Below, piece after piece: positions 40,632-50,098 of a stretch of 64,000 nt of DNA. The notes under the pieces are model-generated. The model made no database searches and had not been told where the DNA came from. It saw nothing but the letters and a program-made list of their open reading frames with translations. How positions within the stretch are numbered: position 1 is the first letter of the stretch; each line of letters begins with the position of its first letter. Where the stretch lies: assembly GCF_003953935.1 (NCBI RefSeq), contig NZ_RXLQ01000001.1:98121-162120 (forward strand). The letters run 5' to 3'. Source of the stretch: Massilia atriviolacea (GTDB lineage: Bacteria; Pseudomonadota; Gammaproteobacteria; Burkholderiales; Burkholderiaceae_D). A program made the translations under genes and the position numbers.

Positions 40632-40979
40632 ATGACCATCACGATTTACCACAATGCGCGTTGCAGCAATTCGCGCCGCGCGCTCGAACTGATCCTCGCC
40701 AGCGGCGCCGAGCCGCATGTCATCGACTACCTTGCCGAACCACCCACGCGCGCGGTGCTGGCCGACCTGATCTCCCGCGCTGGCCTGTCCGTGCGCGACG
40801 CCATGCGCACGAAGGAAAAGGAATATGCCGGTCTGGGCCTGGCCGATGCGGCAGACGATGCGCTGCTCGACGCCATGGTAGCGCATCCGGCCCTGATCAA
40901 CCGCCCGTTCGTGGTCACGCCGCTGGGCGTGCGCCTGTGCCGTCCCGGCGACCTGGTACTGGACATCCTGCCCGCCTAA
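40632..40979 (+). CDS. arsC: ArsC-family arsenate reductase-like protein (glutaredoxin-dependent type)
   Basis: 115 residues with the catalytic Cys in the N-terminal YHNARCSNSRRALELI and the conserved VVTPLGVRLCRP near the end (RP loop). It should reduce arsenate with glutathione and glutaredoxin, although single ArsC genes without an arsB/arsR neighbour, as here, may have other thiol roles. No ars operon gene is adjacent. Its stop shares bases with the stop of the DgkA-family gene on the other strand. Confidence 0.88.
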   Translation: MTITIYHNARCSNSRRALELILASGAEPHVIDYLAEPPTRAVLADLISRAGLSVRDAMRTKEKEYAGLGLADAADDALLDAMVAHPALINRPFVVTPLGVRLCRPGDLVLDILPA

Positions 40980-41371
40980 CCGTTCTGGAGATAAGGCCAG
41001 AAGGTCAGCGCGCCGATCAGCACCGCGCCGGCTGCAGCAATCAGCACGCCGCCGGCGCCGATGTCCTTGGCATGCTTGACGGCGATGGCGTAGCCGGGCG
41101 ACACCACATCGCACACGTATTCGACCGCCGTGTTGATGGTTTCGGCCACCCATACCGCCACCATGGCGGCGACCAGCCAGCGCCAGTCGGCGCTGCTGAC
41201 ATTAAAATATAGCCCGAGGCCGACCACGATCACGCTGGCGGCCAGGTGCAGCCAGGCGTTATGCTGGGTCTTGAGCATGAAGGCGATGCCCGCGATGGCA
41301 TAGCCGAAGCTCTTGGAGCGGGCCGCCAGCGAAAAACGCTGCGGCGTACCGACGTTTTTGGTCTCGTTCAT
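40976..41371 (-). CDS. dgkA: DgkA-family lipid kinase (diacylglycerol or undecaprenol kinase)
   Basis: 131 residues with three membrane helices. The family motifs are AETINTAVEYVCD (E-x-x-N-T-A-x-E) and KHAKDIGAGGVLI. It phosphorylates a membrane lipid alcohol with ATP. The ETINTAVE and AKDIGAGGV forms recall the undecaprenol kinases of Gram-positive bacteria as well as the E. coli diacylglycerol kinase; sequence by eye cannot separate them. The ATG overlaps the stop of the 43-residue ORF upstream (ATGA). It is the last gene of a three-gene coupled operon with the dehydratase/isomerase-like gene. Confidence 0.88.
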   Translation of the reverse strand: MNETKNVGTPQRFSLAARSKSFGYAIAGIAFMLKTQHNAWLHLAASVIVVGLGLYFNVSSADWRWLVAAMVAVWVAETINTAVEYVCDVVSPGYAIAVKHAKDIGAGGVLIAAAGAVLIGALTFWPYLQNG

Positions 41372-41499
41372 GGTGTATCCGTAGGTTTGTTCAAACGCCA
41401 GTCCTGCGCCTCGCCCGGGCGGCGCGCCGACATGGTCAGCCACGACCTGATTGCGGCGATGCCGCCGATAATGGCGGCCAACAGGACGCAGCACGCCAT
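41368..41499 (-). CDS. 43-residue membrane micro-ORF between two coupled genes
   Basis: Not found as a long ORF but well supported. A perfect AAGGAGG lies 8 bp before its ATG. The ATG overlaps the stop of the upstream gene (TAATG), and its stop overlaps the dgkA start (ATGA). The translation begins MACCVLLAAIIGGIAAIRSW, one likely membrane helix with two N-terminal cysteines, followed by a short hydrophilic tail rich in Arg and Pro. I know no family. It could be a subunit or regulator of either partner, or a coupling leader. Confidence 0.65.
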   Translation of the reverse strand: MACCVLLAAIIGGIAAIRSWLTMSARRPGEAQDWRLNKPTDTP

Positions 41500-43436
41500 T
41501 ATCTGCCTCCTTGGGCTTCGACGTGCAGATTTGTGCGCCCGTCGAACGCCATGCTGACGCTGGCCTTGTCATCGGCGTCGGCCGTGACGGCGACGCCGTT
41601 GGCGCGATACTGCCCGTTTGCCTGCAGGCCGCACAAGCCGATCGTGTGCACGCCGTCGGCGTACAGCACCGCGCGCAGGCCCATTGCGTCGGCATGGGCG
41701 CTGGCGACCAGGATGGCGGGGTAGGGCAGTTCGTCCAGCTGCGGCCCCGCCACCGGGCGCGGAGCGCCGATCACCTGGCGAAAGCCGTCGCGCGTACCGG
41801 CCCGCGCCATCAGTTCGACGCCGTGCGCCCACACCGATGCGCGCTGGCGGTGGATCACGCCATTCTTGAGCACACTCGGACACTCCGCTTCCAGCGCGTC
41901 CATGCAGGCGCGGTAGACGGCGCTGTCGCCCAGTTCCGCCGCCGCCAGCGCAGTGGCGCTGTAGGCGCTGGCGCGCGAGAAGCCGTAGTTGCCCGTGTCG
42001 ATAGGCCAGAAGGCGCGGCGGCGGAATGCGCCGGCGCTGTCGAACAACCGGCGCCGCAGCAGCAGCCACTGGCGGCGCGCCAGGTCGGGCGCGACCGCAT
42101 TGAGGAAAAAGCACGGCATCGCCAGCGGCATGGCGCCGCCGATGGCCGGCAGGGCCAGGCCGGTGCGCGCCGATTTGCACGGCACATAGCGGCCGGAGCC
42201 ATCGAGGAATTCGGCTTCGAGATTGTGGCGGAAGTCGCTCGCGTGGTGCGCCCAGCGCTGTTCGCCGTGCTGCGCGTCGAAAGCCATGATCGCGCTGGCG
42301 CCGATGGTGTTACACAAGGGGTAGACCCAATTCGGCTCGCAGGCGATCAGGTAGTAGGGCGAGGTCGTATATTCGTGTTCGAGGCGCCGCACCAGCGAGC
42401 TTGCGTCATGCGTGTAGCGCTGGCCCGATGGATGGGTGAGCGTAAAGCGGCCGGCTTGCGAAAAATCGCGGCGGCCGGTGCTGGCACTGAACAGCGCCAT
42501 CTGCAGCGCCACGAAGCCGGTGTACATGATGTTTTCGCGCGCGACCGGGTCCGGGTCGGCTTGCAGGTTGCCCCACAGGTTTTCCAGGCCCCAGTACGAC
42601 CAGACCCGGTGCTGCGTCTGTTTGTCCAGCAGCGCGATCTGGGCCGCTTGCATGTAGCCGCGAAACGCGGGCGTGTAGCGCGCCTGCGTCAGCGCCACGC
42701 CGTAGGCGAGGAAGTTCAGCTGATAGCGCGTGGCGGCGGTCTGGAACTGGTCGATTCTTTCGAAGCCGTTGAACTGGTCGAGCGGCTGCAGGGCGCGGTC
42801 GAGGGCGAAGCGCAGGCGCTGGAGGTGATCGAGCGACATTTCTGGCATGACGGCGGTGTCGCGGGTGGCGCTGAAAATCTCGCCAAGCCGGCCGGCCTGG
42901 CCGGACAGCCAGGCGTTGTCGATCGTCCTTCGACGGCGCGCCAGCGCGAAGCGGGCGGCCATGGCCAGTCCCAGCGCTGCGCCTGCCAGCGCCAGGCCGG
43001 TGAACACCATCTCGATCGTGGACGCGCGCACGGCACCGTGGCGCATGGTGGCCGCTCCCACGGCCATGCCCAGCCAGACGAGCGGCGGGGCGAGGATATT
43101 CCCGGTGCCGAACCAGACCAGCACGGAGAAAGCGAAAGCGCCCATGCCGGCGGCCGCGGCCAACAGATGGCCGATGCCGCCGGCGGTGCAAAGGTCGGCG
43201 TGGGCCAGGAAGCCGCCGCCGGGCAGGATCAGGCCCATGCCCAGGATGTGCAGCTGGTCGTGGCGCGACAGGACCAGCAAGGCCGATCCGGCCGCCAGCA
43301 TGAGCAGATAGAGCAGCAGCAGGCGGCCTATCCTGGCCTGGGTCACCGGGCCGAACAGGCGCCGGTATGGGGGCAGAGGAACGATTGCGGTGTCTTCGGG
43401 GGCCATTCCTGCCAGTGATCGGGATGAAACGGCCAT
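41499..43436 (-). CDS. Membrane-anchored linalool dehydratase/isomerase-like protein
   Basis: 645 residues. The N-terminal third (about 35-170) carries four or five membrane helices. The rest (about 190-640) looks like the alpha-barrel domain of linalool dehydratase/isomerase (Ldi) of Castellaniella defragrans. Segments recalled from that enzyme are conserved: DPxxxENIMYxG, then TGRRDF, then the CEPNWVYPLCN motif, with C-x8-C spacing matching the two catalytic cysteines of Ldi. Ldi itself is a soluble periplasmic enzyme without this membrane part. Substrate unknown; an isoprenoid alcohol is possible. The stop overlaps the start of the micro-ORF, and dgkA follows, so it is in a coupled operon. 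Confidence 0.75.
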   Translation of the reverse strand: MAVSSRSLAGMAPEDTAIVPLPPYRRLFGPVTQARIGRLLLLYLLMLAAGSALLVLSRHDQLHILGMGLILPGGGFLAHADLCTAGGIGHLLAAAAGMGAFAFSVLVWFGTGNILAPPLVWLGMAVGAATMRHGAVRASTIEMVFTGLALAGAALGLAMAARFALARRRRTIDNAWLSGQAGRLGEIFSATRDTAVMPEMSLDHLQRLRFALDRALQPLDQFNGFERIDQFQTAATRYQLNFLAYGVALTQARYTPAFRGYMQAAQIALLDKQTQHRVWSYWGLENLWGNLQADPDPVARENIMYTGFVALQMALFSASTGRRDFSQAGRFTLTHPSGQRYTHDASSLVRRLEHEYTTSPYYLIACEPNWVYPLCNTIGASAIMAFDAQHGEQRWAHHASDFRHNLEAEFLDGSGRYVPCKSARTGLALPAIGGAMPLAMPCFFLNAVAPDLARRQWLLLRRRLFDSAGAFRRRAFWPIDTGNYGFSRASAYSATALAAAELGDSAVYRACMDALEAECPSVLKNGVIHRQRASVWAHGVELMARAGTRDGFRQVIGAPRPVAGPQLDELPYPAILVASAHADAMGLRAVLYADGVHTIGLCGLQANGQYRANGVAVTADADDKASVSMAFDGRTNLHVEAQGGR

Positions 43437-44642: not shown

Positions 44643-47600
44643 TCAGGCACGCGCCGGCGCCGCCGGGCACCCAGCCCAGCTGGTTCCGGCGGGAATAGTT
44701 TCCCCCTTCATCACCAGCGTCAGCGGCCCCAGGCGGGCGTTGTCGCCGACCCTGGCGCTGTAGAGCACGGCACTGCGCGGTCCCATCGTCACCTTGCTGC
44801 CGATCGCGACATGGTCGATCTTCATCACGCGGTCTTCGAACAGGTGGGTCTGCGGGCAGGCGAAGGCGTTGAGCTCGCTGTAGTCGCCGATTTCCACGCA
44901 GTCGAACTCGGTAATGTCCGTGGTGTCCAGATACACGCCGCGCCCCATCTTGCATCCCAGCAGGCGAAACGCGAGAGGCAGCCATGGCGTGCCGCGCAGG
45001 TAGCGCATGAAGTTGGGGACGGCAATGCCTTCATACAGATTGGTCACGCCTTCCGACAGCCACACGAACGGCGTCCACATCGGCGCCGAGCGCTTGCGGT
45101 AGCGGCCCAGCAGCAGCCATTTGAGGATCAGCACGAACACAAAATTGCCGATCCCATACACCAGCCCGGCCAGCGCCAGGTCGGCGATCACTTCTCCCCA
45201 CAGTCCGGCGGCGGCCGCCGGCATGACGTCCAGCACCACCGTGTAACCGACGGCAATCACCAGCGCGTGCGGCGCGACGATGCGGAAAGTCTCCACCAGC
45301 GTACGGCCGATGCGCCGCAGCGCCGAGGGCCGGTAGGTCAGCCATTCTGGATAGCCGCCGACCTGCTCGCGCGCCGGCAGGTGGATCGGCGGCGAACCGA
45401 GCCAGGTGTCGCCGCTGGCCATGCGCGCATTGTCGGGCGCATGGGTGTGCACGCCGACCAGCACCCGTTCCGGCAGGACCGTGCCGTCCGGAATATAGCT
45501 GCCATTGCCGACGAAGCTGCGGTGCGACACCACCGTCGCCTGCATGGTCATCCAGCCGCCGTCGATGTGTTCGTCGCCGAGCATGACGGCGTCGGCGATG
45601 AAGGTTTCGTCGCCCAGGGTCAGCATGTCGGGCACCACGCCGAGCGCGGTGGAAATTTCGGCGTCGCGGCCGACCTTGGCGCCCAGCAGGCGGTACCAGA
45701 AAGGGGCGAACACGGTGGCATAAATGCCGTGCAAGACGTTCAGGCTCGATTCCTGGATATGGCTCACCAGCCATTTTGCACAGTAAATATTGCTGTGCAC
45801 GGCGGAGCGCCCCGGTTTCAGGCGCGGCAGGCCGCCCCAGCGGATTGCGGCCGAGACCAGCGCGGTCAGCACGATCAGTACGGCGCTGGCCGGAAATGCC
45901 AGCAGGAAGTAGCGCAGCAGCTGGGTGCTCACCTGATTGCCCTGTAGCCAGGGCATGACTTCCATCTCGTCGAGCCAGTCGATCAGCACGAAGCTCGGGA
46001 ACACGGGCATGAAGAACACCGTGGTCACCAGCAAGATGCCGAGCACAAAGAAGACGGCTTCGCCCGCCAGGCGCCCGCGCGTGACCGGTGGCCGGGGCGG
46101 CAGGTCGGACACGAACGGCCCCAGGTCGCGCGCCGGCGAGCCGCCCCACAGGCGCGCGGCCGGAACGCTGGCGCCATCGGCCAGGGCCGCCTGGCCGTCG
46201 AGGTGGCCGAGGGCGCCGATCGAGGTGTTGCCTTCGAGGACGGCGTAGGACGATACCGAGGCATTTGCGCCCAGCGAAATCGTGCCCAGCAACAGCCGGC
46301 CGCGCTCGACACGGGCGTTTTCGAGGTTGACGGCGTTGCCGATGCTCACGCCATCGGCGATGTCGAGCAGGTCGGGCGCGCGCAGGCTCAGCGAGCCGAC
46401 CAGCACTTCCTTGCCGATGCGCGCGCCGAGCGCACGCAACCACCACACGTACAGCGAGGAGCCGCTCAGCAGGTACACCGGGGCCGACTCGACCAGGCGG
46501 TCGGCCAGCCACCAGCGGTAGTAGGTCCAGCCCCACAGCGGGTAGGAACCGGCCTTCAGGCGTCCGGCGACCAGCCATTTGCCCGCAATCGCGATGACGA
46601 ATTCGAGCAGGGTGGCGAGCAGGAACACGCCGATCGAGGCCGCCACGGCGCGCGCGACCGAGTCGCCCGCTTCCCCGGTAAAAAAGTGATAGGTAAAAAA
46701 CGGCGCCAGCCATTGCGCCATGCGCAGGGTGACCAGCGGCGGAATCGCCAGCGCCTGGCCGGCCGCGCAGATCCAGCGGCGGCTGGCGGACGGCGGGCTC
46801 CAGTCCGCTTCAAGCGCCCCAGCGCCGGGCGCATCCATCAGGGCGATGGCGATCTTGCCGATCTGGCGCTGCTGATAAATATCACGCACGGTGACATGGG
46901 CAAACGCGGGATCGGCGCGCAGGGCCGAGGCCAGCCGCGCGGCCAGCAGCGAGTGCCCGCCCAGGTCGGCAAAAAAATCGGCCTCGCGCCGGATCGGCAA
47001 GCCGGGAAAGAGGCCGGCCAGGGCCGCGAACAGGGCCGCTTCGGCCGGGGTTTCGGGCTGGTCCGAGCCGCCGGCCGCTTGCAGCGCGGCCAGCGGCATG
47101 GCCTTGAGCGCCTTGCGGTCGATCTTGCCGGATGTTAAGCGCGGCATCAGCGGCAAGACCTCATAGCGGCTCGGGACCATGTACGCCGGTAACTGTTCCG
47201 CCAGCGCGCGGCGCAGGGTGGCGCCCGACACCGACGCGTCGCCAGCGCCGGCCGCCGCGACCAGGTAGGCGACCAGCTGGTCGATGCCATCGTCCTTGCG
47301 CAGCAGCACCGCCACCGTGCCCACGCCCGCCTGCTGGGCCAGCACGGCTTCGATCTCGCCCAGTTCGACCCGGAAACCACGAATCTTCACCTGGTCGTCG
47401 GTGCGGCCCAGGCATTGCACTTGGCCATCGGCATCGATGCGGGCCAGGTCGCCGGTGCGGTACAGGCGGGCGTCGTGCGGGCCGCTGGACCAGGGATTGG
47501 CGAGGAATTTTTCGGCCGTCAGGTCCGGCCGGCCGAGGTAGCCGGCCGCCAGCCCCGGACCGGTAATGCACAGCTCGCCCGTCGTGCCGCGTGGCTGCAG

Positions 47601-48671
47601 GGTCAAGCCGGGGCCGTCGGTGCCGATCACCAGCAGGCCGTAGTTGGGCAGCGGCGTGCCGATGGTGATCGGGCGGCCCGGTTCCAGCCGTGCCAGGCTG
47701 CACGACACGGTCGCTTCGGTCGGCCCGTAGGTATTGAAGATCTGGCGGCCCGGCGCGGCCCAGCGTTCGACCAGGGATTCCGGGCACATTTCGCCGCCCA
47801 GGTTAATCAGGCGCAAGCCCGGCACTTCGTCGCTGAACAGGGCCAGCAGGGTCGGCACGGCATGCAGCACGGTCACATTGTTGGCGGCGAGCATGCGCGG
47901 CAGCGTTTCGGGATCGCCGGCAATGTCCTTCGGGCCGATCCAGAGCGTGGCGCCGACCAGGTAGGAAATCCAGATTTCCTCGAACGACATGTCGAAGGCC
48001 ACCGAAAAGCCTTGATAAACGCGGTCGTCTTGCCGCACGCCGAGGACCGCGTTTTCGCTGCGCAGGAAATGGCAGATGCTGCGCTGGGAAATCAGGATGC
48101 CTTTCGGCTTGCCGGTCGAGCCGGAGGTATAGATGACGTACGCCGGCTGGTCGGGCGAGACGTCGCCACGGCGCTGAAGGCGTTCGCCGTCCGCGAGCGG
48201 CGCCAGCACGTCGTCGGCGCACCAGGCGGGGATGGCGCCGCCGGCCAGTTGGCCGGCGAGGGCGGCGCTGGCGATGACGCCGATGGCGCCGGCATCCTCC
48301 ACGCAAACCGCGAGGCGCTCGGCCGGCGTATCCTGGTCGACCGGCAGCCAGGCGGCGCCGGCCTTGGCGATGGCCGCTTGCGCGACCAGCAATTCGATGC
48401 CGCGCATCATCCACAGGCCGACAATGTGGCCGGGACGCACGCCCAGCCCGATCAGGCGCGAGGCGCCGATGTCGGCCAGCGTGTCCAGTTCGGCGTAGCT
48501 CAGGCTGCGGTCCCGGAAAATCAGTGCAAGCTGGCCGGGCGCGCGCAGGGCGGTCGCTTCGAGCAGGTCGGCCAGGATGTCGTGCCTGAGCAGGGAAGGC
48601 GCCGCCGGGCCGTAGAGGATGTCAGGATGGGCGGCGGCCGGCGCATTGGCGGGCAAATGTTGATCGAGCAT
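44643..48671 (-). CDS. Pls/PosA-family NRPS-like protein (adenylation, carrier, membrane and beta-helix domains)
   Basis: 1342 residues from ATG 48671. The adenylation domain (about 35-535) has YTSGSTGKPKG, FNTYGPTEATV, YRTGDLARI and the catalytic Lys in LTSGKIDRKAL. The peptidyl-carrier domain carries the phosphopantetheine Ser574 (LGGHSLLAARL). There is no condensation or thioesterase domain. The C-terminal half (about 630-1342) alternates membrane helices with hexapeptide-repeat left-handed beta-helix sections, as in epsilon-poly-lysine synthetase (Pls) relatives. In Pls, such tandem C-terminal domains polymerise an amino acid. The product here is unknown. It is expressed toward VirK. A phosphopantetheinyl transferase is not in the window. 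Confidence 0.88.
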   Translation of the reverse strand: MLDQHLPANAPAAAHPDILYGPAAPSLLRHDILADLLEATALRAPGQLALIFRDRSLSYAELDTLADIGASRLIGLGVRPGHIVGLWMMRGIELLVAQAAIAKAGAAWLPVDQDTPAERLAVCVEDAGAIGVIASAALAGQLAGGAIPAWCADDVLAPLADGERLQRRGDVSPDQPAYVIYTSGSTGKPKGILISQRSICHFLRSENAVLGVRQDDRVYQGFSVAFDMSFEEIWISYLVGATLWIGPKDIAGDPETLPRMLAANNVTVLHAVPTLLALFSDEVPGLRLINLGGEMCPESLVERWAAPGRQIFNTYGPTEATVSCSLARLEPGRPITIGTPLPNYGLLVIGTDGPGLTLQPRGTTGELCITGPGLAAGYLGRPDLTAEKFLANPWSSGPHDARLYRTGDLARIDADGQVQCLGRTDDQVKIRGFRVELGEIEAVLAQQAGVGTVAVLLRKDDGIDQLVAYLVAAAGAGDASVSGATLRRALAEQLPAYMVPSRYEVLPLMPRLTSGKIDRKALKAMPLAALQAAGGSDQPETPAEAALFAALAGLFPGLPIRREADFFADLGGHSLLAARLASALRADPAFAHVTVRDIYQQRQIGKIAIALMDAPGAGALEADWSPPSASRRWICAAGQALAIPPLVTLRMAQWLAPFFTYHFFTGEAGDSVARAVAASIGVFLLATLLEFVIAIAGKWLVAGRLKAGSYPLWGWTYYRWWLADRLVESAPVYLLSGSSLYVWWLRALGARIGKEVLVGSLSLRAPDLLDIADGVSIGNAVNLENARVERGRLLLGTISLGANASVSSYAVLEGNTSIGALGHLDGQAALADGASVPAARLWGGSPARDLGPFVSDLPPRPPVTRGRLAGEAVFFVLGILLVTTVFFMPVFPSFVLIDWLDEMEVMPWLQGNQVSTQLLRYFLLAFPASAVLIVLTALVSAAIRWGGLPRLKPGRSAVHSNIYCAKWLVSHIQESSLNVLHGIYATVFAPFWYRLLGAKVGRDAEISTALGVVPDMLTLGDETFIADAVMLGDEHIDGGWMTMQATVVSHRSFVGNGSYIPDGTVLPERVLVGVHTHAPDNARMASGDTWLGSPPIHLPAREQVGGYPEWLTYRPSALRRIGRTLVETFRIVAPHALVIAVGYTVVLDVMPAAAAGLWGEVIADLALAGLVYGIGNFVFVLILKWLLLGRYRKRSAPMWTPFVWLSEGVTNLYEGIAVPNFMRYLRGTPWLPLAFRLLGCKMGRGVYLDTTDITEFDCVEIGDYSELNAFACPQTHLFEDRVMKIDHVAIGSKVTMGPRSAVLYSARVGDNARLGPLTLVMKGETIPAGTSWAGCPAAPARA

Positions 48672-48775
48672 GAATACCACTTCGTTGAGCGGCGCTGAGG
48701 GACCTCGGCGCCAGCCGTCACGATATAACATTTTATTTCGGTCGTGTTGCCGTACAGCTCTGTATTCAGGGAATC

Positions 48776-50098
48776 TTAAGTCAGCGAGTTCAACGAGGCT
48801 GCGCGCGATACGCTGGCGTTCATCGCGCCGTAGCCGCGCTTGAGCGCCAGCGACAGGTTCAGCAGCAGGAATGCCGCCGACAGGCACATGGCGCCGGCCG
48901 CCGGCCTTGCCAGCTGCGCCGGCCACCAGCAGGCCGCCAGCAGCAAGGCCAGGGCCGCAGCGTGCAGCCAGAACTGGCGCTGCGCCACCGCGTCGGCGAT
49001 CAGGGTCTTGATGGCAGGGGCGCGCTGGCCTTCGGCGGCGCGTTCCTGCAGCTCGCGCCAGACCAGGAAGGGCACGATCTTGTACAGCATGCCGTTAATG
49101 GTCGAGTACAAAAAGCCGACCAGCATCAGCACGCCCATGGCCAGGGTGCGGCCGTCCCCCGCCATGCGATCGGGCAGTGCCCACAGCGCCGCGCAGGCGA
49201 GCATGCTGGCCATCGCCAGGCGCCAGAACAGGGTCATGGCGTCGGCCTGCGGCCGCTTGCGGCGCGCCAGCAGGCGCAGGGTGGCCAGCGCGAACACGGC
49301 GTAAGCGGCCAGCAGCAGCGCGCCGGCCACGGTGTCGATCCACGCCAGGCGCGCGCGCAACGCGGCGGCGCTCACAGTCCACAGCACCAGCAGCAAAAAG
49401 ATCGCCACGCCCAGCACCTGCGGCAGCGGCCTGTCGTACAGCGGCGTGACCTGGAACATCGGCACCACCTGGAACGATACCCCGACCAGCAGCAGTCCGC
49501 CCCATCCGAACACGCCCCACAAGGCATGCAGGTCGGTGGCCAGCATCAGCGGCAGCAGCGCGCCGCGCGCCGGCCAGGCGAAGGTCCACGCCATCAGCGC
49601 GCCGAGGCAGACCGTGACCACGAGGCAGCCCAGGGCCAGCCGCACGGTGGCCGTCATCGGGATCGCGCCGGGCGGCGGCATCTGCCACAGGGCGAGCGTC
49701 AGCGCCCCGATCAGCCAGGCGAAGCCCGGCAGCAGCAGGACCAGCGCGAGCTGGAACAGCCATGGCTGCGAGAACAGGAAGGCGCACGACAGGGCTGCCG
49801 TGCCGCCTGCCAGCAGGGTGTGCACGCCGGGCGCCAGGATGCGCGCGCGCGGCAGCGAGACGCCCGCCACCACGGGCAGGATCTGGATCAGCGCGCCGGC
49901 CATGGCCATGCCCAGCGTGCCGAGGGTGAGCAGGTGGGTCAGCGCCAGCGTGGACGGCGACCAGCGCGAGGCCAGCGCCGGCGCCCCTTGCCACAGCAGC
50001 AGCGCGCCGGCCAGCAGCGCGAAGACGGGGGTGGCAAAGAAATAGCGCAGGACCGCTCCGAGCGGCGGCGATTGTTCGAGCGAGAGTGTGCGCTGCAT
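48776..50098 (-). CDS. Polytopic membrane protein resembling heme-copper oxidase subunit I
   Basis: 440 residues with about 12 hydrophobic helices. Conserved-looking His occur in ALTHLLTLGTLGMAMAGALIQ and DLHALWGVFGWGG, which recall the heme-binding helices of cytochrome oxidase and NO reductase, but the full set of six metal His is not evident. Proteins like this often sit beside denitrification and hemerythrin genes and have no defined activity. It follows DUF2249 and hemerythrin genes (3 bp after the former), forming a three-gene operon. Role in NO or oxygen handling is inference. Confidence 0.65.
   Translation of the reverse strand: MQRTLSLEQSPPLGAVLRYFFATPVFALLAGALLLWQGAPALASRWSPSTLALTHLLTLGTLGMAMAGALIQILPVVAGVSLPRARILAPGVHTLLAGGTAALSCAFLFSQPWLFQLALVLLLPGFAWLIGALTLALWQMPPPGAIPMTATVRLALGCLVVTVCLGALMAWTFAWPARGALLPLMLATDLHALWGVFGWGGLLLVGVSFQVVPMFQVTPLYDRPLPQVLGVAIFLLLVLWTVSAAALRARLAWIDTVAGALLLAAYAVFALATLRLLARRKRPQADAMTLFWRLAMASMLACAALWALPDRMAGDGRTLAMGVLMLVGFLYSTINGMLYKIVPFLVWRELQERAAEGQRAPAIKTLIADAVAQRQFWLHAAALALLLAACWWPAQLARPAAGAMCLSAAFLLLNLSLALKRGYGAMNASVSRAASLNSLT

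What the first reader, a model, noticed from the sequence alone, without database searches (positions are those of the whole stretch)
40976..43436. Coupled operon: membrane-anchored linalool dehydratase/isomerase-like protein, 43-residue membrane micro-ORF and DgkA-type lipid kinase
Seen: three genes joined by TAATG and ATGA overlaps, so they are translated in step. The first protein has the C-x8-C motif (CEPNWVYPLCN) and DPxxxENIMYxG, which I recall from linalool dehydratase/isomerase, plus an N-terminal membrane part that the known enzyme lacks. The last protein belongs to a family that includes undecaprenol kinases. Inference: both enzymes act on a membrane isoprenoid alcohol (a polyprenol), for example recycling or modifying a glycan carrier, with the micro-protein as a helper. 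I know of no described system of this kind.
Basis: partly seen in the sequence, partly recalled or inferred. Interest (0 to 1): 0.72.

Follow-up and report, generated by a model that had tools for sequence, protein, structure and literature searches.

The report
Isoprenoid-alcohol enzyme with conserved microprotein partner
Three overlapping bacterial genes encode a membrane-bound enzyme related to linalool isomerase, a tiny two-cysteine membrane protein and a lipid-alcohol kinase; the tiny protein accompanies most of the close relatives of this enzyme examined, so it is probably a missed working part of it.

Summary
In detail: ldi-like gene, 43-aa ORF and dgkA overlap as TAATG and ATGA. The large protein has the Ldi fold (Pfam 253.8 bits; AlphaFold pLDDT 94.7; 27 best PDB matches all Ldi). 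Its membrane anchor is not new: it is a full-length relative (33% identity) of the published membrane-anchored linalool isomerase (Lis) of Thauera linaloolentis.

What is new is the micro-ORF. An M-x-C-C membrane protein lies beside the Ldi gene in 57 of 78 loci (54 by strict rule, 3 continuous with DgkA added by hand), against 5 of 713 control ORFs. Among 60 related genomes it occurs in 7 of 7 with the enzyme and credibly in 0 of 53 without. The examples tested match no Pfam or NCBIfam family. A longer form lies in what I infer to be the Thauera atu-lis cluster. Lis expressed alone in E. coli was inactive; a missing partner would explain that and is easy to test.

DgkA coupling marks one well-supported clade (24 of 26 rows; 0 of 57 outside). 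Three Aureimonas loci add a cis-prenyltransferase upstream. I read the operon as an isoprenoid-alcohol isomerase with accessory subunit plus a kinase for the alcohol. Substrate, catalysis and the microprotein's role are inferred.

The parts
41499..43436 (-). ldi-like gene, 645 aa: N-terminal helical membrane domain, Ldi domain, small C-terminal beta domain
42876..43349 (-). helices at residues 30-187: membrane anchor, the last long helix running through an Arg-rich stretch (inferred cytosolic)
   Evidence: secondary structure of the AlphaFold model; aligns with the Lis anchor
42312..42341 (-). C366-x8-C375, counterpart of the catalytic Ldi cysteine pair
   Evidence: invariant in 73 of 73 and 71 of 71 rows; aligned with soluble Ldi proteins
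41368..41499 (-). MxCC microprotein, 43 aa; starts inside the ldi stop codon (TAATG)
41488..41493 (-). codons of C3-C4 of the microprotein
   Evidence: the Cys pair was part of most searches that chose these rows, but it also came out of a search without any Cys criterion
40976..41371 (-). DgkA-family membrane kinase, 131 aa; ATGA overlap with the microprotein gene

Best explanation
The operon encodes a membrane-bound unit that processes an isoprenoid alcohol. (1) Shown: the large protein is a full-length homologue of membrane-anchored Lis with the Ldi fold and an invariant C-x8-C pair. Inferred: at the inner face of the membrane it moves the hydroxyl of an allylic isoprenoid alcohol between tertiary and primary positions, or removes it, by Cys/Asp acid-base catalysis. 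(2) Shown: the MxCC microprotein is a conserved neighbour of membrane-anchored Ldi proteins, also without dgkA. Inferred: it is an accessory subunit whose cysteine pair keeps the catalytic thiols reduced or helps to close the active site, where soluble Ldi has a C48-C101 disulfide cap that the rows compared here lack. (3) Shown: in this clade a DgkA-type gene follows and in three lineages is one reading frame with MxCC. Inferred: the kinase phosphorylates the primary alcohol, giving a prenyl monophosphate and pulling the isomerisation. The likeliest substrate class is an endogenous lipid-like (cis-)polyprenol, because a cis-prenyltransferase joins the operon in Aureimonas and, in the loci looked at, the module sits among varied genes rather than in a shared degradation cluster. 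My estimates: conserved partnership about 0.9; accessory subunit of the enzyme about 0.65; kinase acting on the enzyme's own product or substrate about 0.5; polyprenol rather than short terpenol about 0.45.
For: Fold and family. Catalytic Cys pair invariant in 71 of 71 rows. MxCC beside ldi in 57 of 78 loci (window's clade 24 of 24, Nevskiaceae 7 of 7, rest 26 of 47; 3 of the 24 are DgkA-continuous cases added by hand, so 54 of 78 by the strict rule) against 5 of 713 control ORFs; loci were chosen by Ldi peptides only. A search for small hydrophobic ORFs just behind ldi without any Cys criterion found such an ORF in 33 loci; 28 begin with the CC pair and 2 with MCPLC. Genome co-occurrence 7 of 7 against 0 of 53 credible. 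None of the 5 soluble or divergent PF18566 loci that I scanned has an MxCC ORF. MxCC and DgkA continuous in 3 lineages (L056, L063, L065). DgkA coupling 24 of 26 in one clade (SH-aLRT 99), 0 of 57 outside. Cis-prenyltransferase upstream in 3 of 3 Aureimonas loci; the 2 of them whose whole genomes were searched hold 2 copies, 5 other DGK-clade genomes 1 each. Lis alone was inactive in E. coli and Lis needs a reductant: PMC4791888. Long-type MxCC in the inferred Thauera atu-lis cluster. Ldi C170/C179 must be reduced, C48-C101 oxidised: PMC6600392; no Cys at the cap positions in the 6 membrane-type rows shown.
Against: No activity, substrate or physical complex was tested. Only 3 of 26 clade rows carry the cis-prenyltransferase (several loci are short); the window's genome has one PF01255 gene, on another contig. 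The position of the DgkA Mg ligand E28 (role recalled) is Gln in 17 of 22 Ldi-linked DgkA rows, the window's included, so the kinase may be altered or weak (8 further Massilia rows were left out). 21 of 78 loci lack an MxCC ORF close by under my rule; some have variants, five have a contig end within the search span, several have none found. The invariance of C3-C4 is partly built in, because most rows were picked by that motif. In the Thauera locus MxCC is about 8 kb from lis, not beside it. The positive charge after its short hydrophobic segment fits an N-out helix, which would put the cysteines on the side away from a cytosolic Ldi domain. Lis inactivity in E. coli may simply be misfolding, as its authors suggest, and UV-VIS spectra of enriched Lis gave no sign of a cofactor (PMC4791888), which speaks against a coloured metal site. 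Ldi H129 (role recalled) is Phe here. The AlphaFold model of a long-type MxCC was weak (pLDDT 73.8, pTM 0.39).
Confidence: 0.5

Rival explanations
1. Short-chain terpenol salvage: the enzyme turns tertiary C5-C15 alcohols (linalool or methylbutenol type) into primary ones, and the DgkA-like kinase phosphorylates these for reuse in isoprenoid synthesis.
For: Lis works on linalool and geraniol (PMC4791888); full-length homology; prokaryotic DgkA/UdpK kinases take lipid alcohols (recalled).
Against: In 16 clade loci clustered (ORFs of at least 90 aa), only ldi (16) and dgkA (15) recur throughout, besides antisense frames of ldi; 20 neighbours scanned showed no shared pathway (14 of the 20 from clade loci). 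A cis-prenyltransferase is not needed for salvage.
Confidence: 0.27
2. Linalool-type catabolism as in Thauera: the module simply starts the degradation of external monoterpene alcohols, and dgkA is incidental.
For: Same architecture as Lis; in Thauera lis sits with the atu genes.
Against: Window neighbours are a UreJ/HupE protein with urease genes (these named by recall), DUF535 and a Pls/PosA-type synthetase; dgkA is kept in 24 of 26 rows of the clade. The rest of the genome was not searched for atu genes.
Confidence: 0.12
3. MxCC is only a membrane anchor or assembly peptide for the oligomer; its cysteines are structural and not redox-active.
For: A hydrophobic segment and, in the short type, an invariant Trp; Lis ran above 600 kDa on sizing (PMC4791888); soluble Ldi is a pentamer (PMC6600392); no cofactor seen in enriched Lis.
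Against: A two-Cys N-terminus came out of a search without Cys criterion (30 of 33 loci), and the long type adds an invariant His, a further invariant Cys and a near-invariant second His, which suggests chemistry or metal binding.
Confidence: 0.3

Closest known systems
Linalool isomerase (Lis) of Thauera linaloolentis 47Lol
   Same: Same length and layout, membrane anchor plus Ldi domain; 33% identity over 638 aligned positions (with the Lis that I identified by published properties); a long-type MxCC ORF lies in its atu-lis region.
   Different: No DgkA-family hit in the 13-kb stretch around lis; long-type (127 aa) MxCC about 8 kb away; lies in an atu degradation cluster (PMC4847356, passages). 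The MxCC partner is not mentioned in the parts of PMC4791888 (parts 1-2 of 5 and passages) and PMC4847356 (passages) that I saw.
Linalool dehydratase/isomerase (Ldi, LinD) of Castellaniella defragrans
   Same: Ldi fold, C-x8-C pair, ENIMY motif.
   Different: Ldi is soluble and periplasmic with a C48-C101 disulfide cap (PMC6600392, passages); here a membrane anchor, no Cys at the cap positions, Phe at the H129 position, an extra C-terminal beta domain, and an MxCC neighbour.
Prokaryotic diacylglycerol/undecaprenol kinase (DgkA/UdpK, PF01219)
   Same: Whole domain, ExxN...E and AKD boxes kept.
   Different: A distinct paralogue; a second DgkA lies elsewhere in the same genome; Gln at the E28 position in 17 of 22 rows.
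25-hydroxysteroid kinase plus unknown C-O lyase, Sterolibacterium
   Same: An ATP-using route for a tertiary isoprenoid-type alcohol (PMC8449060, passages).
   Different: That kinase is a 40-kDa protein enriched from soluble extract with little similarity to known phosphotransferases; the words diacylglycerol and linalool do not occur in that text.

Membership tests
PF18566 Ldi family | Profile score above curated cut-off | tested here: met
   253.8 bits against 26.1
PF18566 Ldi family | Ldi fold | tested here: met
   AlphaFold pLDDT 94.7; top 27 Foldseek PDB hits are all Ldi entries, E 9.9e-12 to 3.4e-10, TM by target 0.71-0.78
PF18566 Ldi family | Catalytic C-x8-C pair | tested here: met
   C366/C375 invariant, 71 of 71
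Castellaniella-type soluble Ldi | C48-C101 capping disulfide | tested here: not met
   no Cys at the aligned positions in the 6 membrane-type rows shown; Cys roles from PMC6600392
Castellaniella-type soluble Ldi | H129 in the active site (recalled) | tested here: not met
   ENIMYKGH becomes ENIMYTGF
Membrane-anchored linalool isomerase (Lis) | N-terminal transmembrane helices plus cytosolic Ldi domain | tested here: met
   helices 30-187; alignment with Lis over both parts. Sidedness inferred from charges, no topology program run
Membrane-anchored linalool isomerase (Lis) | Isomerises geraniol and linalool | not testable with these tools
   needs an enzyme assay
Membrane-anchored linalool isomerase (Lis) | Gene lies in an atu terpene-degradation cluster | tested here: not met
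   nearest neighbours looked at are UreJ/HupE with urease genes (recalled names), DUF535 and a Pls/PosA-type synthetase
DgkA/UdpK kinases (PF01219) | Profile score above cut-off | tested here: met
   100.3 bits against 22.3
DgkA/UdpK kinases (PF01219) | All acidic catalytic and Mg-binding positions kept (roles recalled) | tested here: not met
   ExxN...E and KD kept, but E28 position is Gln in the window
DgkA/UdpK kinases (PF01219) | Phosphorylates a lipid alcohol | not testable with these tools
   needs a kinase assay

The most novel reading that the evidence does not exclude
MxCC is an undescribed family of cysteine-pair membrane microproteins that is a required subunit (redox or metal partner, or lid) of membrane-anchored Ldi/Lis enzymes in proteobacteria and actinobacteria, and the Ldi-MxCC-DgkA operon is a new enzymatic switch that parks and re-activates polyprenol carriers by hydroxyl transposition and phosphorylation.
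Probability: 0.25. Interest if true: 0.87.

Novelty: new variant of a known kind. Interest (0 to 1): 0.72.

Why it matters
Lis and Ldi are the two described members of EC 5.4.4.4, enzymes that move a hydroxyl between allylic positions, and Lis could not be made active in E. coli (PMC4791888). A conserved, unannotated two-cysteine partner gives a direct explanation to test: co-express it. If right, a family of alkene- and terpenol-forming enzymes opens to biochemistry. The DgkA-coupled branch suggests a way bacteria handle isoprenoid lipid alcohols that no paper listed in my searches describes (open-licence PMC papers only).

Tried and rejected
Rejected: the membrane anchor as novel (Lis has it, PMC4791888). 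Rejected: the micro-ORF as a chance ORF. Rejected as a fusion: the apparent Ldi-MxCC fusion in L088; its linker looks like a frameshift and MxCC has its own ATG, so I do not count it as a fusion; under the strict rule this locus counts as a miss. In the DgkA-continuous frames (L056, L063, L065) an internal start is not excluded.

The model of a long-type MxCC was weak and was not searched against structures. Tree distances of Ldi, MxCC and DgkA correlate (0.57 Ldi-MxCC, 0.79 Ldi-DgkA, 16 loci), but shared ancestry alone can give this, so I give it little weight. One paper search on polyprenol or isoprenol kinases and salvage gave nothing of use.

Counts, what was dropped: of 80 genome-contig loci, 2 (L061, L069) had no full Ldi ORF and were left out of the 78; both have an MxCC ORF. 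The rule misses variants such as Nocardia MCPLC and MLACC. The 80 loci are the best 80 of 104, hence closest to the window; the five Massilia rows of the tree are near copies of one another. Controls were mechanical ORFs of at least 300 aa, not curated genes. In one search three ldi-negative genomes gave marginal MxCC hits (E 0.003-0.009, partial, one stop inside); I count them as not credible. That these 60 genomes were among the 120 is inferred from their handle numbers. Further PF18566 matches seen were not scanned for MxCC.
Full report
OBSERVATION. Of 120 genomes drawn as relatives, the own one included, 7 carry a PF18566 gene: the own and six others of its genus. The closest named records are Massilia. 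All six keep the order ldi, micro-ORF, dgkA. In wider draws PF18566 is rare: 6 of 369 genomes of the class and 3 of 399 of the order, the own genome counted in both, and 6 of 249 in the family of Uliginosibacterium.

THE ENZYME. The large protein scores 253.8 bits for PF18566 over residues 237-535. An AlphaFold model from 71 aligned homologues has mean pLDDT 94.7 and pTM 0.93; its 27 best PDB matches are all Ldi entries. C366 and C375, the counterparts of the catalytic cysteine pair, are invariant in 71 of 71 rows. Two Ldi features are missing: the cap cysteines C48 and C101, and the histidine recalled as H129, which is Phe. The membrane anchor is not new. Lis of Thauera linaloolentis is a 644-aa protein with four predicted helices in the first 139 residues and a cytosolic Ldi-like domain (PMC4791888, parts 1 and 2 of 5 and passages read). 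Upstream lie a 545-aa ORF, the length published for AtuC, and a gap of 3487 bp to the preceding large ORF, against 3488 bp published between atuH and atuC (the ORFs were matched by length and spacing, not by family search). The published primer core lies at the ORF start, though also in a sister genome. P0001 and this Lis align over 638 positions with 33% identity.

THE MICROPROTEIN. A search with Ldi peptides brought 80 named loci. Next to ldi lies a small hydrophobic ORF beginning M-x-C-C in 57 of 78 of them (54 by the strict rule, plus 3 continuous with DgkA added by hand), against 5 of 713 control ORFs of the same loci: 24 of 24 in the window's clade, 7 of 7 Nevskiaceae and 26 of 47 others. 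It is downstream in the window's clade and in Nevskiaceae; outside the window's clade it is upstream only in 17 loci and downstream only in 16, the 7 Nevskiaceae included. Looking for any small hydrophobic ORF starting near the ldi stop, with no Cys criterion, gave one in 33 loci: 28 have the CC pair, 2 MCPLC and 3 neither. Aligned short-type rows have invariant M1, C3, C4 and W34 in 24 of 24, the Nocardia row (MCPLC) with a gap between the cysteines; as most rows were picked by the Cys pair, W34 is the independent part of that result. A longer type of about 80-130 aa has invariant C3, C4, H79 and C107 and near-invariant H82 in 18 rows (again CC was a criterion, the others were not). A profile of the short type finds all 7 ldi-carrying genomes among 60 relatives (E at most 1.4e-13) and nothing credible in 53 without ldi (ldi status). 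Five soluble or divergent PF18566 loci scanned have none. In L056, L063 and L065 the MxCC peptide and DgkA are one reading frame. In the Thauera locus a long-type MxCC ORF lies just after the ORF that I take for atuH, inside the 3488-bp gap, about 8 kb upstream of lis on the same strand. The three MxCC proteins tested against Pfam match no family; of six tested against NCBIfam, five match none and one has a single hit far below its cut-off.

THE KINASE. The third protein is PF01219 (100.3 bits) and a paralogue: the window's genome has a second one elsewhere. The ExxN...E and AKD boxes are kept; the E28 position is Gln in 17 of 22 Ldi-linked rows, the window included, and Glu in 5 (8 Massilia rows left out). 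In the Ldi tree (83 rows, midpoint-rooted for drawing) all dgkA-coupled proteins fall on one side of a split (26 rows, SH-aLRT 99): 24 of 26 have dgkA directly downstream, L044 has no intact one, L048 ends too soon; of the other 57 rows none has it in the stretch held (54 by profile; 3 by BLAST with the window's DgkA; tree, L044). Among 16 loci of that clade clustered together, only ldi and dgkA recur throughout (ORFs of 90 aa or more). In the three Aureimonas loci a cis-prenyltransferase (PF01255, 237.9 bits in L021) lies directly upstream. The two Aureimonas genomes searched have 2 such genes each, while five other dgkA-coupled genomes and seven of the window's genus have 1.

READING. Shown: a conserved three-gene unit, an Ldi-fold Lis-type protein, a conserved MxCC neighbour and a DgkA-type gene. 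Inferred: MxCC is an accessory subunit; its cysteines protect or complete the active site; the kinase handles the alcohol that the isomerase makes or uses; the substrate is a lipid-like isoprenoid alcohol. The strongest outside hint is that Lis expressed alone in E. coli reached the membrane but was inactive, and that Lis needs a reductant (PMC4791888). In soluble Ldi the catalytic thiols must stay reduced while a second pair forms a cap disulfide (PMC6600392, passages). Against it: the authors of the Lis paper suggest misfolding, and saw no sign of a cofactor in UV-VIS spectra of enriched Lis.

NOVELTY. Searches for papers that join these terms listed none describing an MxCC partner or an Ldi-DgkA operon (open-licence PMC papers only, listings capped). 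[quoted passage not shown] I therefore call the enzyme a member of a known kind and the operon with its microprotein a new variant.

Noticed in passing
L066, L068, L070, L071, L076, L081, L086 (Nevskiaceae); L095: A gene like L066's MpaB/Lcp-type protein (PF09995, rubber-oxygenase-like; only L066 was scanned with Pfam) lies immediately upstream of ldi in 7 of 7 Nevskiaceae loci and just downstream in Hoyosella L095; no dgkA was found there.
   Followed up: partly
L066:12175-13143: A polyprenyl synthetase (PF00348) gene lies convergent to ldi-MxCC in Hydrocarboniphaga; not found by BLAST in the other Nevskiaceae loci.
   Followed up: partly
   Followed up: partly
L051, L059, L063, L065, and by position L021: Upstream of ldi: a protein of about 205-240 aa (no Pfam match in the four scanned: L021, L059, L063, L065) and a winged-helix ORF (HTH_34 in the three scanned: L021, L063, L065), possibly local regulators.
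   Followed up: partly
L044:11956-12800: Aquabacterium locus keeps ldi and MxCC but has no intact dgkA behind them.
   Followed up: no
L041:12400-13965: Polaromonas: an exosortase gene (PF09721) directly follows dgkA, then a VIT-domain protein.
   Followed up: no
   Followed up: partly
window 44643-48926: NRPS-like Pls/PosA-family protein with adenylation and carrier domains and the NRPS_term_dom region, also near ldi in the 6 other genomes of the genus.
   Followed up: no
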